Shown: piece by piece, positions 19,722-25,831 of the stretch | Position numbering within the stretch: position 1 is the first letter of the stretch | Layout of the letters: each line of letters starts with the position of its first letter | Source of the DNA: a virus | Strand: one strand, 5' to 3' | DNA length: 25,831 nucleotides | IMG/VR virus record: IMGVR_UViG_3300020204_000335 | Location: 1-25,831 of that record | The notes under the pieces: generated by a model | What the model saw: only the letters and a program-made list of their open reading frames with translations | Database searches by the model: none | Told to the model about the DNA's origin: nothing | Program-made: the position numbers and the translations under genes

Positions 19722-20741
19722 TCAGCAGTTCCACTTACGAAGAGATAGTGCTTTTCTTGTTGGACGACCTTTTTCATCTTTCATGGGACCAGGCATTCCT
19801 CCCATACGAGCACAAAATGACTTTCTACGATTTGCTGCTTTTGATCCTGGTTTTAATTTTGATGGTGGTGTAGTTACTGGTGGTTTTAAATTATGACCTT
19901 GTGCTCTAGCAGAAGCTCTGCCTTTGGCATTTAATCCTCCTGTGGGATTTTTACCTTCTTTTCTTTGCCAGGCAGGTGATGCTTCTTTGATATCCTTCCA
20001 TCCTTTGGAAGTTTTTACATTATGTTCTTTTCCACCTGGACCAATATCTGCAATTTTAAATTCTATGGGTTTAGTTGTGCTTATTTTTACTTTTTTTCTT
20101 GCTTCAGTAATGAAGTTACTGTAAGTCATACCTTCTGAAACATCTTCATCACTTTGCATATATTCTGCTGCAGTATCAATAAAATCTGCTGCTCTGGTAA
20201 TCTTTGATTGTACCCAAGCAGGAATCTGTTGATCACCTTTTTTAATTTTTCCTCTTAAAATATTAACTGCTCTTTCAATTTGATCAAACTCAACTCTTGC
20301 CATATATCCTTCTTCATCTTTCTTTTTGCCACTTGCAATTTCCTTGTGACCTTCATGAATCTTTAATTCATTGGCAAGATTCATCTTGCCAATAGTATAT
20401 TTGTCCCACATAGAAGGACCCCAAGAACACTCTGCTCTGGTTTCATTCTTTCTGCAAAGAAGACAATACTTTATATCTTCTTTGTATTGTTTTTCTGCAG
20501 TAGTTTCTTCTTTCATGGGTTTGTTTTTTTCTACTTTTTTTAATCTTGTATAATAATCTGGAAATTCATCTACATGTTGAAGCGCTGTAATTCTTGCACC
20601 ACTTTTACTTGTGGTGTGCTCACCTTCAATTTTAGTTCCAATTTTAACCTGCTTCATAATAGTTTCCAAAGAAACTTTATGCTTTTTGGAAAGTTCCTCT
20701 GGAGATTTGTATGGTTTTACAGGTCCTTTTGGATCTTTCAT
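19722..20741 (-). CDS. Basic multidomain protein between gp16 and gp17
   Basis: This 339-residue Lys-rich protein has three visible parts. Residues 12-70 (SPEELSKKHKVSLETIMKQV, then EGEHTTSKSGARITALQHVD) resemble DUF5661, a small phage domain. Residues 144-196 contain EFDQIERAVNILRGKIKKGD and IPAWVQSKITRAADFIDTAA, a pattern I recall from marine T4-like virion proteins (QLPAWVQSKITKASDY). Residues 256-339 (SPAWQRKEGKNPTGGLNAKG, then RRKSFCARMGGMPGPMKDEK) resemble DUF6321. Cysteines C93, C96 and C105 lie in the linker and could bind metal, with C310 and C339 near the end. In T4, 16 and 17 are adjacent, so this is an insertion into the terminase operon. A GAGGAA ribosome site precedes the ATG. 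Function is unknown; DNA or core binding is suggested only by charge and context. Confidence 0.85.
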   Translation of the reverse strand: MKDPKGPVKPYKSPEELSKKHKVSLETIMKQVKIGTKIEGEHTTSKSGARITALQHVDEFPDYYTRLKKVEKNKPMKEETTAEKQYKEDIKYCLLCRKNETRAECSWGPSMWDKYTIGKMNLANELKIHEGHKEIASGKKKDEEGYMARVEFDQIERAVNILRGKIKKGDQQIPAWVQSKITRAADFIDTAAEYMQSDEDVSEGMTYSNFITEARKKVKISTTKPIEFKIADIGPGGKEHNVKTSKGWKDIKEASPAWQRKEGKNPTGGLNAKGRASARAQGHNLKPPVTTPPSKLKPGSKAANRRKSFCARMGGMPGPMKDEKGRPTRKALSLRKWNC

Positions 20742-21164: not shown

Positions 21165-22019
21165 TCAAATGTCAACATCTTCGCCTTGTGATGCACTATA
21201 AGTCTTAAAGTCTACAAATTCTTCTATTGTATCATTAAACCCAAAGTCATCTCCAAATTCAATTAAGTTATCATCAACACTATCAATGATTCCATCATCA
21301 TTATAATCCTCAAGTGCTTTTGGTGTAACTGTATATCTAACTTCCCTCTTAGCATTTTTGATAGCATCAGTTGCATAATCAACTTGAACTTTCTTAATGA
21401 GACCCTGACTATTTTCTGGGATTTCATTAAAGAGATATGTTTTTGCAGTAAATGCTAGTGTGTATATGATAATTCTTCTAGTTGAATAGTCACCTTCATA
21501 ATCATCTCTAAATCCAACTCTATTTAAAACTACTGGAATGTCTCTTTTCTCATTAATAGATGGAATCATATTCACGGTTACATTAAATGATGGTTGGAAA
21601 TATGGAAGAATCTGTTCCACAATTTGCAAAACATCATCTTGAATTTTGGACATGATGTTAAGTTCGAATCCAATATTGTAAGGAACTGGCATGAACACAC
21701 TGTTCATTGCCTTACCATCAGAAGATTTAGCAGTTTTAAATGTTTGCAAAGATGAAGATTTTCTTTGAGAATCATAATCTAAAGAAGTCATTTCAAAAGA
21801 CATTCTTGGCAATGTCAATGCAAGTTTTCTATCTCCAGTTGGATTTTGCTCTAGTCTTGCTAAGAACTTTTGCATTGGTCCATAAGCAAGGGGAACTTTT
21901 AGTACAGATAATGGAGTCCCATCATCATCAAATTTTCTAATTTGAATATTGTTAAATAACGTTCCAAAAGCAACTACTGTTTTGCTTATAGACTTATGGT
22001 AAAAATAATTGCCAAGCAT
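21165..22019 (-). CDS. 15: Tail terminator / sheath stabiliser gp15
   Basis: Gp15 is a hexamer that closes the top of the tail and joins it to the neck. The 284 residues match T4 gp15 (272). Shared sequence includes the N terminus (MLGNYFYHKSISKTVVAFGT with LFNNIQIRKF; T4 MFGYFYNSSFRRYATLMGDL with FSNIQIKR) and the nearly identical DDVLQIVEQILPYFQPSFN at 128-146. Near the end, residues 238-249 read DYNDDGIIDSVD, which fits a calcium-binding EF-hand/dockerin loop (D-x-N-x-D-G-x-I-D-x-x-D). I know of no counterpart in T4 gp15. An AGGAA ribosome site lies about 11 bases before the ATG. The gene follows the subtilase gene after 35 bases, whereas in T4 it follows gene 14. Confidence 0.95.
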   Translation of the reverse strand: MLGNYFYHKSISKTVVAFGTLFNNIQIRKFDDDGTPLSVLKVPLAYGPMQKFLARLEQNPTGDRKLALTLPRMSFEMTSLDYDSQRKSSSLQTFKTAKSSDGKAMNSVFMPVPYNIGFELNIMSKIQDDVLQIVEQILPYFQPSFNVTVNMIPSINEKRDIPVVLNRVGFRDDYEGDYSTRRIIIYTLAFTAKTYLFNEIPENSQGLIKKVQVDYATDAIKNAKREVRYTVTPKALEDYNDDGIIDSVDDNLIEFGDDFGFNDTIEEFVDFKTYSASQGEDVDI

Positions 22020-22054: not shown

Positions 22055-24403
22055 TTAAGATTGTTTATATCTCAATGTTCCCATTCTTGGCCAAGTTTGT
22101 CCTGAAGTTTTTCTAACTCTTTCTGCTACTCTTGGTTGAATAGTTCCTTTAATTGGCCTATCTTGTCTGTAGAATAGGTATCTATTTCCAGAACCTTGAA
22201 GGTTTTGGAAATCTAAGTATGGATTATATAGACTAACTCTTGGGTTTGCTCCCATATGAAGATCTATTGTGTTTGAAGCATTTTCAAAAAATACCATTTC
22301 CCAAACTAAAGTTGGAGATCCCAAAACTCCTCCAAAATAAACAGTATGCCCTTCAAATCTTACTCTATATTCTCTATTTGGAGAAGATCCTGTAGTATTA
22401 GTCCATATTCTTTGAGCAGATCCATCATCAGTTGAAATTTGTATTTTGGGTATAGTTGGAGTACTTGTGTTATATGTCCATGCTACATCTGCGTCATAAG
22501 AATTGCTTGAAGGTTTTGCTCCAAATAAAACATATGAATTTGTATTTACAAAAATTTTGTTATATGAAGTTTCATTATATGATATATTGAAGGGTAAAGT
22601 TAATTCCCAAAATCCATCATCCTCTGGAGGAAATGTAGGATTAAAATGATTTGGAGTAGTGGAAGCAATTCCAACTCCACCAATCAAACTACTTGTGGTT
22701 GGAGTTATTGTTCCTCCACTAGCAGTTGTTACAATTCTAACTGAAGTATTTGGAGCAGCAATAAAATTTTCTGTCCCTGCAAGTTTTGATACTGTATTAC
22801 TGATAGAACTTAAACCTTGATCAATATATGGTGTAGATGCAGGTTCAAATATTTGATTTTTTGATATTCCTTGAATATACTCTATTGCTTCAACATGAGT
22901 CATTCTTGGATATTGTTCTAATGCGCAGGCAAGAACTCCACATATCTGTGGTGATGCCATACTTGTTCCACTATATTTGTCTATTGTAAATGTAGAGTTT
23001 CTATAATCTCCTTCTGGTCCACTATGTGTTGAAGATATAATTGAAGTTCCTGGAGAATATACAGTTATTCTTGGTCCAGTGCAACTAAAATTTACTTTAG
23101 AATCATTTGCCAAATTCCCAATTGCACCAACACAAATAGCATTTGCTCCAGAAGTATTTACAGATCCTCTATGATAATAAAAAGAATTACCTGATCCGTA
23201 TAAAGCAGGTCCTATTAATCTATTGTCGTAATCTACTCCTCCAGGAGCATCAATTTTATATGAAGAATTTCCTGCAGCACCTACAAAAATTACACCATCA
23301 TTCATAGCATCTTGCATATCTGCAAGGTCATCTTCAAACCAAAATTCAAATCCTATGTAACCAGTTCCTTGGAAAGAGAAATAATTGATTACTCCAAATG
23401 ATTCTAATTGAGCATCTGTGAATGGGGCATTATATGTTGTTCCTCTCCAAACAATACCTGTTAAATTACTTCTTATAATATAGTTTGCATATCCCCAACT
23501 ATTGTTTATAATTGTTGGATTTCTTAAACCAGTTTGTGAATTGATTGGTTTTGTTAAATGAAATGCTCTGATATAGTCTGCCCAGAAAATAGCAGCATCT
23601 GATTGATCGTAAATGTATAAATTATAAACTTTTGCATCTCTTGCCCATCCCTGACTATTCCCACATGCAGTTCCAGCAACATGCATTCCATGATCATTGT
23701 TTCCTAGATTTGGGACATTATAATCAATGGTATAAGGGTATGTTCCATTTGCATTACCAGTAACAATACTGTTGAGTGAATACCAATTAAATTGAACTAC
23801 TCTTGTTCCTCCAGTGCCATCTTCATTCACTGCCATTTCTGGGTGATTTGGATTCACAAATCCATCTACAATTACAACATCAACATTTTTTCCTGAACTG
23901 GTTGCAGTAACAATTCCAGTTACTGATGTAGTTCCATTCGATCCCCAATTAGATCGTTGTTGACCTTCTATACATCTTAGTAATGCCCAATTTCTATGAG
24001 TATTGCTGACTGCAAAAGATTTATTCCAGGCATTAGATGATTGTTCCCAAAGAGGTTTTACTATTCTCTGTTCTTTAATTTTTTTGGGAATAATACTTAA
24101 AACTCTAGGATCATTTTTTAAAATTTCAACTTCTTCTGCTGTTAAAATATAATGTGTATTTCTTGAAATTGGTCTTCTTATTGCACATTCAACACATCTA
24201 TCTGGAACACATTCAGTTCCTCCATGAGTTTCTAAATCATCATAAAATTGATCTAAATCTTCTTTGTTTTTTAAAGTAATAATGTACTCCTCTTCTCCAT
24301 CAGAAATTAAGTCTGATGTAATTACTTTAGATGGATCAAAATGTTGTAAAATTCTATCTTCTAAAAATTGTCTAGGATTTTCTTTTACTTTTTTTTCTTC
24401 CAT
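22055..24403 (-). CDS. Subtilisin-like serine protease (S8) with C-terminal structural domain
   Basis: The ATG at 24403 is chosen because GGAAAG lies 5 bases upstream and the previous gene ends at 24405; a TTG at 24424 is the alternative. The 782 residues start with an acidic region containing a Cys-rich patch (ECVPDRCVECAIRR, about 64-77), perhaps a prodomain. The S8 catalytic domain follows: Asp180 in VIVDGF, His238 in NDHGMHVAG, oxyanion Asn379 in GAAGNS and Ser481 in SGTSMASP, all intact. After about 550 the sequence becomes a Thr/Gly/Asn-rich beta domain (GFWELTLPFNISYNETSYNK, then FVNTNSYVLFG) like those in phage fibres or neck proteins. No clear signal peptide is seen. Position before gp15 suggests a virion part. 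Substrate unknown; prohead processing is already covered by gp21. Confidence 0.9.
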   Translation of the reverse strand: MEEKKVKENPRQFLEDRILQHFDPSKVITSDLISDGEEEYIITLKNKEDLDQFYDDLETHGGTECVPDRCVECAIRRPISRNTHYILTAEEVEILKNDPRVLSIIPKKIKEQRIVKPLWEQSSNAWNKSFAVSNTHRNWALLRCIEGQQRSNWGSNGTTSVTGIVTATSSGKNVDVVIVDGFVNPNHPEMAVNEDGTGGTRVVQFNWYSLNSIVTGNANGTYPYTIDYNVPNLGNNDHGMHVAGTACGNSQGWARDAKVYNLYIYDQSDAAIFWADYIRAFHLTKPINSQTGLRNPTIINNSWGYANYIIRSNLTGIVWRGTTYNAPFTDAQLESFGVINYFSFQGTGYIGFEFWFEDDLADMQDAMNDGVIFVGAAGNSSYKIDAPGGVDYDNRLIGPALYGSGNSFYYHRGSVNTSGANAICVGAIGNLANDSKVNFSCTGPRITVYSPGTSIISSTHSGPEGDYRNSTFTIDKYSGTSMASPQICGVLACALEQYPRMTHVEAIEYIQGISKNQIFEPASTPYIDQGLSSISNTVSKLAGTENFIAAPNTSVRIVTTASGGTITPTTSSLIGGVGIASTTPNHFNPTFPPEDDGFWELTLPFNISYNETSYNKIFVNTNSYVLFGAKPSSNSYDADVAWTYNTSTPTIPKIQISTDDGSAQRIWTNTTGSSPNREYRVRFEGHTVYFGGVLGSPTLVWEMVFFENASNTIDLHMGANPRVSLYNPYLDFQNLQGSGNRYLFYRQDRPIKGTIQPRVAERVRKTSGQTWPRMGTLRYKQS

Positions 24404-24414
24404 ATTAACTTTCC
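24404..24414 (-). promoter_or_regulatory. Ribosome site that decides the subtilase start
   Basis: On the minus strand GGAAAG (24414-24409) sits 5 bases before ATG at 24403. It lies in the last codons of the fibre gene. The TTG at 24424 has no comparable site, so the ATG start is favoured. Confidence 0.6.
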
Positions 24415-25831
24415 ATCTGAACAAGAGTTAGAGTAACAGTAATATTTGCTGTAGATCCTGATTTATTGACTACTTTAAGATAAATGTTTGTTGATGGAGT
24501 AGCATCATTATTAAATCCAATAGTTCCTGGAGTAATTAATTGAGTTGTTGCTCCAGTTGTAATGACCTCTGCAATAACTCCAGAACCTGGAAGTGGATCA
24601 GAAGTTTCTCCTCTAGAAGAATCACTAGTTCTAGATGCAGTATCTGTGTAAATTGTCACCCATGCTGCAGCATCAGTTTGAATTTTTGCTAACAGATAAG
24701 TTTTAAACCCTGTGATAGTGAAGTTAGCAGAAGCACCATTTGCAATAGATCCTGTAGATCCTGAAGCAGTAATTCTGCCACCAAGAGCACCCCCAAATGC
24801 ACCTTGAGTTCCTTGAGGTCCAATAGATCCTTGTGAACCTTGTGGTCCACCACCAGCAAATCCTTGGGCACCTTGTGGTCCAAATGTTCCAATTGAACCA
24901 GTTTGACCTTGGAATCCTTGGAATCCAGTTGATCCTTGAGGTCCTCTTACACCTTGAGGACCTTGTACACCTTGAGGACCTTGAGGTCCTCCTCCAGCAG
25001 CACCTTGAATACCTTGTGCACCTTGAGGTCCTGCAACTCCTTGAGCACCTTGTGGACCTCCTCCAGCAGCACCTTGTACACCTTGAGCCCCTGTAGGTCC
25101 AACATCAGTAATTGATATTGTTCCAGACATTCCACCATGAAACTGGCAAATATAATATAAAGTACTAGGAGCATCATAAGGAACTGCAAATGTAATAGTT
25201 CCGCTAGCAGTTCCATTGTTTGTTACGCCGTTATTATAAGCACTTCCTGTTCCAGTAACTTGTGCAGTTTTAATCCAGAATGGATGACCAGAAGCATTAA
25301 CACTAAAAGTATAAGTAAATCCACGTAGTAGATTTAAAGTTGGATTAGATGCACCGTCTATTGTATATGAACTTGCTCCACTATTTGTTACTGAATAGGT
25401 TCTACTACCAGAACTTCCTTGTGCACCTTGGGGACCTGGATCTCCTTGAGCACCTTGTGGACCTCCTCCAGCAGCACCTTGTACCCCTTGTGCCCCAACA
25501 TCTCCTTGAGAACCTTGTGGACCTTCTAATCCTTGAGCACCTTGAGGACCAACACTTGCTGCACTGCCAGCAATTTCAACAGTAATTACTTTAGTAGAAC
25601 TATTATAGGTAATAGTATTTCCTGCACCTGCAAAGTTAATTGCAGTAATAATTCCTGTAGTAATATCTACTCCAGCAGATTGAATGCCAACATTAAATCC
25701 ACCTACTGCAGTGACTATTCCAGAAACTGTTACATTATTACTAAAAGTAGAAACACCAGAAACACTTAATTGATTTGTAAATGTAGTTCCAGTGACTGTT
25801 ACACCAGTTCCAAGAGTTTCAAACTTCTTGG
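24405..25831 (-). CDS. Collagen-like tail fibre/virion protein with cupredoxin-like domain, 5' end outside window
   Basis: The frame is open from the stop at 24407-24405 to the right edge, with 474 residues visible and no N terminus. The Met at 25130, which looks like a start, is internal. Reading from the edge, there is a Thr/Val/Gly fibre-like region ([20 protein letters not shown]), a first Gly-x-y collagen-like block (about 25550-25405), then a beta domain (25400-25116) with SGHPFW and later CQFHGGM. The His, Cys, His and Met there match type 1 copper ligands. A second Gly-x-y block follows (25100-24777), then a beta-rich C-terminal domain of about 115 residues. GPQGxQG triplets dominate. 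Marine T4-like phages often have such proteins as fibres or whiskers. Copper binding is inference. Confidence 0.88.
25037..25079 (-). repeat. 43-bp perfect direct repeat, copy 1
   Basis: This 43-bp stretch in the second collagen-like block is identical to 25442-25484. The copies are 405 bases apart, a multiple of three, and in the same frame, both coding a [14 protein letters not shown]-type phrase. A third, partial match of 20 bases lies at 24988-25007. Together they flank the cupredoxin-like domain. Confidence 0.95.
25442..25484 (-). repeat. 43-bp perfect direct repeat, copy 2
   Basis: Second copy of the 43-bp repeat, in the first collagen-like block upstream of the cupredoxin-like domain. 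The bases just outside both copies differ, so the identity has sharp edges. Gly-x-y coding alone would allow more synonymous change than is seen. Confidence 0.95.

What the first reader, a model, noticed from the sequence alone, without database searches (positions are those of the whole stretch)
22055..24403. Intact subtilase in the tail region of a T4-like phage
All subtilisin catalytic residues are present (Asp180, His238, Asn379, Ser481) within a 782-residue protein that ends in a beta-rich domain like phage surface proteins. It sits between a fibre gene and gp15, where T4 has neck gene 14. Prohead maturation is covered by gp21, so this protease may act on the host surface, on other virion proteins such as the neighbouring fibre, or on itself. 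The Cys-rich acidic N-terminal part may be an inhibitory prodomain.
Basis: partly seen in the sequence, partly recalled or inferred. Interest (0 to 1): 0.6.

Follow-up and report, generated by a model that had tools for sequence, protein, structure and literature searches.

The report
Cyanophage tail-fibre protease with docking tag
This marine T4-like phage carries a complete protein-cutting enzyme whose gene is always paired with a tail-fibre gene, and a shared short end tag, also found on a second kind of protease at the same place, suggests the enzyme is plugged onto the fibre tip to cut proteins on the host cell surface.

Summary
Confirmed: an intact 782-aa subtilase lies on the minus strand, 24403-22055 (PF00082, E 2.7e-27; D180, H238, N379, S481). 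Homologues occur in about 40 cyanophage records and many IMG/VR contigs; the catalytic residues are invariant in 78 full-length relatives. Its real context is a two-gene module. The gene 1 nt upstream is a fibre whose last ~118 aa form a conserved beta domain ("FCD"). All 91 non-redundant FCD-coupled proteases carry an R-P-x-S-G-x-x-[F/Y/W]-P-R-type tag after the catalytic domain; 0 of 63 subtilases coupled to a different fibre domain do. The tag is also on S53 sedolisins, another protease family, that replace the subtilase behind an FCD, and is missing from 5 sedolisins not behind one. In phage S-SCSM1 a subtilase homologue and its fibre carry a "virion protein" label that appears to follow mass-spectrometry data. 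Best reading: a zymogen protease docked by its tag on the fibre's C-terminal end, acting on host surface proteins. Docking and substrate are inferred, not shown. Novelty: new variant of a known kind (fibre plus separately encoded tip protein).

The parts
22055..24403 (-). subtilase gene, 782 aa
   Evidence: ORF and catalytic residues; PF00082 E 2.7e-27; PHROG 9158 E 8.8e-103
24071..24295 (-). propeptide-like domain, residues about 37-111
   Evidence: predicted beta-alpha-beta-beta-alpha-beta order; conserved ISRNTHY..LT..EA..L..D.RV in relatives; only weak Inhibitor_I9 profile matches, 2 of 53 members, E 0.15
22859..24049 (-). S8 catalytic domain, residues about 119-515
   Evidence: Pfam; fold match to proteinase K-like enzymes, Z 31-35
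23864..23866 (-). catalytic Asp180
   Evidence: invariant in 78 full-length relatives
23690..23692 (-). catalytic His238
   Evidence: invariant in 78 full-length relatives
23267..23269 (-). oxyanion Asn379
   Evidence: invariant in 78 full-length relatives
22961..22963 (-). catalytic Ser481
   Evidence: invariant in 78 full-length relatives
22184..22840 (-). variable beta-rich insertion, residues about 522-740
   Evidence: absent from most relatives, which have the tag soon after the catalytic domain; shared with L022 and L001 and a non-subtilase ORF of S-SRM01
22130..22165 (-). first, degenerate tag copy QDRPIKGTIQPR, residues 747-758
   Evidence: several relatives also show two copies about 15 aa apart
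22085..22120 (-). C-terminal tag RVRKTSGQTWPR, residues 762-773
   Evidence: tag in 91 of 91 non-redundant FCD-coupled proteases, 0 of 63 FCD2-coupled
24405..25829 (-). upstream fibre gene, 5' end cut by the record, with collagen-like GPQGAQG repeats
   Evidence: tail-fibre PHROGs; stop codon 1 nt before the subtilase ATG
24408..24761 (-). FCD, the conserved C-terminal domain of the fibre, 118 aa
   Evidence: alignments A1, A4; model pLDDT 96.7, all-beta
25110..25439 (-). cupredoxin-like module within the fibre
   Evidence: C-terminal part of PHROG 9158 matches fibre residues 131-240; in relatives the same module sits at the end of the subtilase
21165..22019 (-). gp15, tail sheath stabiliser, downstream neighbour
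   Evidence: PHROG 227 E 7.3e-99

Best explanation
The gene encodes a zymogen-type subtilisin that works as the tip enzyme of the fibre encoded just upstream. (1) Fibre and protease genes are adjacent with a 1-nt gap, so their translation is probably coupled (arrangement shown, coupling inferred). (2) The protease has no signal peptide and is kept inactive in the host cytoplasm by its propeptide-like N-terminal domain (inferred). (3) A C-terminal R-P-x-S-G-x-x-(F/Y/W)-P-R-type tag binds the FCD, the last domain of the fibre, and so places the enzyme at the distal end of the fibre (inferred from co-occurrence across two protease families). (4) On the virion it cuts host surface proteins during adsorption, much as tailspike depolymerases cut polysaccharides (inferred). 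The enzyme is exchangeable: other phages put a sedolisin, or a family without known protease domain, in the same slot.
For: Catalytic residues invariant in 78 full-length homologues. The FCD ends 0-3 aa before the fibre stop in 212 of 214 ORFs, and the next gene is an S8 protease in 141, an S53 sedolisin in 12 and one further family in most of the rest; gaps mostly +1 nt. Tag in 84/84 non-redundant FCD-coupled S8 and 7/7 FCD-coupled S53, in 0/63 S8 coupled to another fibre domain, against 8% in shuffled tails; absent from 5 sedolisins not behind an FCD. The sedolisin of L042 matches kumamolisin at E 8.8e-31 yet ends DRRPATGMVWPR. FCD2-coupled subtilases have their own tail motif NPFAN in 44/63. 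Relatives add surface-type modules: esterase-like and cupredoxin-like (S-MbCM7), laminin-G (S-SCSM1), carboxylesterase and Ig (S-TIM54), cupredoxin-like. S-SCSM1 virions (CsCl, MS, PMC9602691): the subtilase homologue and its fibre partner carry the 'virion protein' label, as do non-structural proteins that the paper reports as detected. Patchy presence, 42 records, argues against a core assembly role.
Against: No binding, activity or location was measured for this protein. Within S8, tag and fibre-domain type split on a single branch of the tree, so the association there counts as one event; the sedolisins are the second. S-SCSM1's enzyme belongs to the FCD2 type and is 27% identical, and the link between its GenBank label and MS is inferred from the pattern of labels. 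The tag is internal in relatives with added domains. No substrate is identified.
Confidence: 0.52

Rival explanations
1. The protease is an assembly enzyme: it cuts the neighbouring fibre, for instance removing the FCD after it has helped the fibre trimerise, and is not needed on the finished virion.
For: Constant pairing with the fibre gene. An Arg just before the FCD is near-invariant in protease-coupled fibres, 112 of 113, in an otherwise poorly conserved Gly-rich linker.
Against: The same Arg is kept by FCDs whose partner is not a known protease (S-BM3, S-SCSM1 and others, 9 of 37) and is lost in one FCD subgroup; fibres of the FCD2 type, also protease-coupled, have no conserved basic residue there. 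Both partners are labelled virion proteins in S-SCSM1. Added esterase, lectin and Ig modules make little sense for a fibre-processing enzyme.
Confidence: 0.2
2. The subtilase fold serves mainly as a receptor-binding tip, and the activity is only used once, to cut its own propeptide, as in PCSK9.
For: Fold matches include PCSK9; variable C-terminal modules look like adhesins; the gene position matches gp38-type tip adhesins.
Against: A second, separate protease family occupies the same slot, which points to proteolysis rather than shape. All catalytic residues stay invariant over very divergent relatives.
Confidence: 0.13
3. The protease acts inside the infected cell, for example on host proteins or in lysis, and its place near fibre genes reflects a shared late operon only.
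For: No signal peptide or membrane segment.
Against: The close pairing with FCD-ended fibres holds at several genome locations: between gp14 and gp15, among baseplate genes, and in the talC/tRNA island; the fibre-specific tag; the virion label in S-SCSM1.
Confidence: 0.08

Closest known systems
Subtilisin-like serine proteases of Kyanoviridae cyanophages (PHROG 9158; T4-GC_292, e.g. P-SSM2 PSSM2_297, S-WAM2, S-H38)
   Same: Same family; already annotated as subtilisin-like serine protease or as containing PF00082.
   Different: The window protein has its own beta-rich insertion and belongs to the FCD-coupled, tag-bearing branch; the pairing and the tag are not described in the records or in the papers searched.
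T2-type long tail fibre pair gp37/gp38
   Same: A separately encoded tip protein sits on the end of the fibre trimer, and partner compatibility matters (PMC12892980); that gene 38 lies directly downstream of gene 37 is general knowledge, not tested here.
   Different: gp38 is a poly-glycine adhesin, here the partner is a protease; gp38 binds gp37 through its N-terminus, here the candidate is a C-terminal tag.
Kumamolisin / sedolisin family S53
   Same: Occupies the same slot behind an FCD in L042 and L111-L119, with the same tag.
   Different: A different protease family with Ser-Glu-Asp chemistry; the window has S8.
Self-cleaving C-terminal chaperones of phage tailspikes and fibres (Peptidase S74 type)
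   Same: A protease next to the C-terminal end of a fibre.
   Different: S74 is a cis-acting part of the fibre chain (general knowledge); here protease and fibre are separate genes.

Membership tests
Peptidase family S8 (subtilases) | Asp/His/Ser triad with the HG.H and GTSMA motifs plus oxyanion Asn | tested here: met
   D180, H238, N379, S481; invariant in 78 homologues.
Peptidase family S8 (subtilases) | profile and fold | tested here: met
   PF00082 E 2.7e-27; proteinase K-like fold, Z 31-35
Peptidase family S8 (subtilases) | proteolytic activity | not testable with these tools
   needs an assay
Inhibitor I9-type propeptide | I9 fold and sequence N-terminal to the catalytic domain | tested here: inconclusive
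   beta-alpha-beta-beta-alpha-beta prediction; weak profile matches, E 0.15, in 2 of 53 members; no PDB propeptide hit with the profile
FCD-coupled tip-enzyme module (defined here) | FCD-ended fibre directly upstream | tested here: met
   FCD ends at the fibre stop, 1 nt before the subtilase ATG
FCD-coupled tip-enzyme module (defined here) | R-P-x-S-G-x-x-[FYW]-P-R-type tag after the catalytic domain | tested here: met
   RVRKTSGQTWPR, residues 762-773
FCD-coupled tip-enzyme module (defined here) | physical docking of the tag on the FCD | not testable with these tools
gp38-type fibre-tip adhesins | poly-glycine type II sandwich fold | tested here: not met
   the partner is a subtilase
Peptidase S74 intramolecular chaperones | protease domain within the fibre chain | tested here: inconclusive
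   the protease is a separate gene; the PHROGs scan of the fibre showed no chaperone family among the 25 rows listed; no Pfam scan of the fibre was made, and its 5' end is missing

The most novel reading that the evidence does not exclude
Marine T4-like phages use a plug-in system: the fibre's last domain is a socket and a short tag on the next protein is the plug, so that different enzymes (S8 subtilase, S53 sedolisin, perhaps a further family with its own ART-type ending) can be exchanged at the fibre tip. Different sockets have different plugs (FCD with the PR tag, FCD2 with the NPFAN tail).
Probability: 0.5. Interest if true: 0.75.

Novelty: new variant of a known kind. Interest (0 to 1): 0.6.

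Why it matters
Enzymes on phage tails are mostly known to cut sugars. A widespread class of fibre-tip proteases in common marine phages would point to protein layers on picocyanobacteria as a barrier or receptor. The tag and socket give a directly testable binding rule, and could explain how host-recognition enzymes are exchanged between phages.

Tried and rejected
PF08793 (2-cysteine adaptor) matched 12 of 53 homologues; where located, the match lies inside the catalytic domain (e.g. residues 244-258 of the S-CREM1 enzyme) and is taken as chance. A conserved linker Arg before the FCD was tested as a cleavage site: it is not protease-specific. The FCD model gave only generic beta-sandwich matches, best Z 6.3, so no family is claimed for it. 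The propeptide profile found no PDB propeptide. No homologue of the N-terminal part in plasmids. Genome contigs gave only 11 MAG contigs with an FCD, several again with an S8 partner, probably binned phage DNA. Paper searches for phage subtilases, S8 peptidases or sedolisins on tails found no description of this module in the held library.

Full report
Observation. Pfam Peptidase_S8 covers residues 171-505 at E 2.7e-27. The predicted structure has a well-modelled catalytic domain (about 119-515) that aligns best with proteinase K-like enzymes (Z 35), a propeptide-like N-terminal domain and a poorly modelled beta-rich stretch from about 598 to 716.

The phage. The window is the whole virus record. 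The major capsid protein is up to 76% and the portal up to 69% identical to marine T4-like phages, mostly cyanophages, so this is a T4-like cyanophage relative. Downstream of the subtilase come gp15, small terminase, a 339-aa gene, large terminase, sheath, tube and portal. Relatives L022 and L088 show gp13, gp14, fibre, subtilase, gp15 in order, with gp13 and gp14 identified by PHROGs; L094 has ORFs of the same sizes in the same order. P-SSM2 has 13-14-15 without the cassette there. So fibre and subtilase form a cassette between genes 14 and 15, not a substitute for gene 14. In other phages the cassette lies among baseplate genes (S-CREM1, S-H38) or near talC and tRNA genes (S-RSM4, S-WAM2).

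Relatives. tblastn finds 42 phage records, nearly all cyanophages, 26-48% identical; two of them match only the beta-rich part. Several are annotated as subtilisin-like protease. In all 78 full-length subtilases behind an FCD (including the window), Asp, His, Asn and Ser are kept; the one exception in that count, L042, proved to be a sedolisin.

The fibre partner. In the annotated relatives, except S-TIM54, the gene directly upstream is a fibre-like protein with a gap or overlap of a few nt; the annotated start in S-T4 leaves a larger gap. Most end in a homologous domain of about 118 aa (FCD); P-SSM2, S-SCSM1, S-T4 and Sf-CH8 end in a different one (FCD2). Searching IMG/VR with the FCD alone gave loci where the next gene is again a protease in nearly all cases; these are the best 80 of more than 570 matches, so they favour close relatives. 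In the enlarged set of 214 FCD ORFs the next gene is S8 in 141 and S53 in 12; of 40 distinct other partners, 37 belong to one family, roughly 530-870 aa when complete, many ending in ..ART, and three members scanned gave no Pfam match. These counts are not corrected for near-identical contigs.

The tag. After the catalytic domain, FCD-coupled proteases carry a stretch with consensus R-P-[TS]-S-G-x-[VT]-[FYW]-P-R. After removal of near-duplicates an [FWYV]-P-R tag is in 84/84 FCD-coupled S8, 7/7 FCD-coupled S53 and 0/63 FCD2-coupled S8; shuffled tails give 8%, and the longer form G-x-x-[FWYV]-P-R is in 84% of the FCD-coupled and none of the FCD2-coupled. FCD2-coupled enzymes have another ending, with NPFAN in 44/63. 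L042 is the striking case: an FCD fibre followed at +1 nt by a kumamolisin-like sedolisin (E 8.8e-31) that ends in DRRPATGMVWPR plus four residues; the window ends in RVRKTSGQTWPR plus nine. Five sedolisins not behind an FCD lack the tag (one of them is cut by the contig end). Within S8 the two coupling types separate on one branch (100/99 support), so the association in S8 is one event, and the sedolisins supply a second. A tag that follows the fibre domain and not the protease family is what a docking element would look like; binding itself is not shown.

Virion evidence. In S-SCSM1, mass spectrometry of CsCl-purified virions found 45 proteins (PMC9602691). In its GenBank record the label 'virion protein' is on a protein the paper names as detected (the D-alanyl-D-alanine carboxypeptidase) and on a translational repressor, and is missing from several structural genes, so it appears to follow the MS data. 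The subtilase homologue (gp144) and the fibre directly upstream (gp145) both bear it, as do the FCD fibre gp141 and its partner gp140 of the ART family. Supplementary tables could not be read, so this link is an inference.

Function. Added modules on relatives (esterase-like, laminin-G, Ig, cupredoxin-like), the lack of a signal peptide and the patchy distribution favour a virion enzyme acting at the host surface. The main rival, fibre processing, was tested: the linker Arg before the FCD is near-invariant in protease-coupled fibres (112/113) but is shared with FCDs that have no known protease partner and is missing in FCD2 fibres. That lowers this rival without excluding it. T2-type gp38 on gp37 is the nearest known arrangement (PMC12892980).

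Verdict. The subtilase itself belongs to a known annotated family. New here, as far as the held literature shows, are the constant fibre partner, the tag rule, and the replacement by a second protease family. Shown: sequence, gene order, conservation, co-occurrence. Inferred: docking, tip location, latency by the propeptide, and host surface proteins as substrate.

Noticed in passing
L042:5503-7636: FCD fibre followed by a kumamolisin-type sedolisin instead of a subtilase, with the same C-terminal tag; further cases in L111-L119.
   Followed up: yes
L012:1831-4386, L009:2581-4884, L011:1181-3511, L101:4356-6182: A third FCD partner family, starting GNTGW..DV..ALE and often ending ..ARTT, without Pfam match in the members scanned; many of its FCDs end in IGE rather than LE.
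   Followed up: partly
L016:4033-10455 (S-TIM54): 2140-aa protein joining carboxylesterase, subtilase and Ig domains, not paired with an FCD fibre.
   Followed up: partly
L008:5986-8910 (S-MbCM7 / ACG-2014h): Subtilase, alpha/beta-hydrolase-like and cupredoxin-like domains in one chain, the latter two after the tag.
   Followed up: partly
window 25110-25439: A cupredoxin-like module in the fibre that in other phages sits at the end of the subtilase: apparent module exchange between the two partners.
   Followed up: partly
window 19722-20741: 339-aa gene between small and large terminase with a conserved C-terminal end (RRKSFCARMGGMPGPM...) found in several PHROGs of unknown function.
   Followed up: no
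L282: One contig carries both an FCD fibre and an FCD2-subtilase pair.
   Followed up: no
FCD2-coupled subtilases, e.g. L010:5950-7785: Their own conserved ending RRILFNPFANN...ITG, possibly a second plug type for the FCD2 fibre domain.
   Followed up: partly
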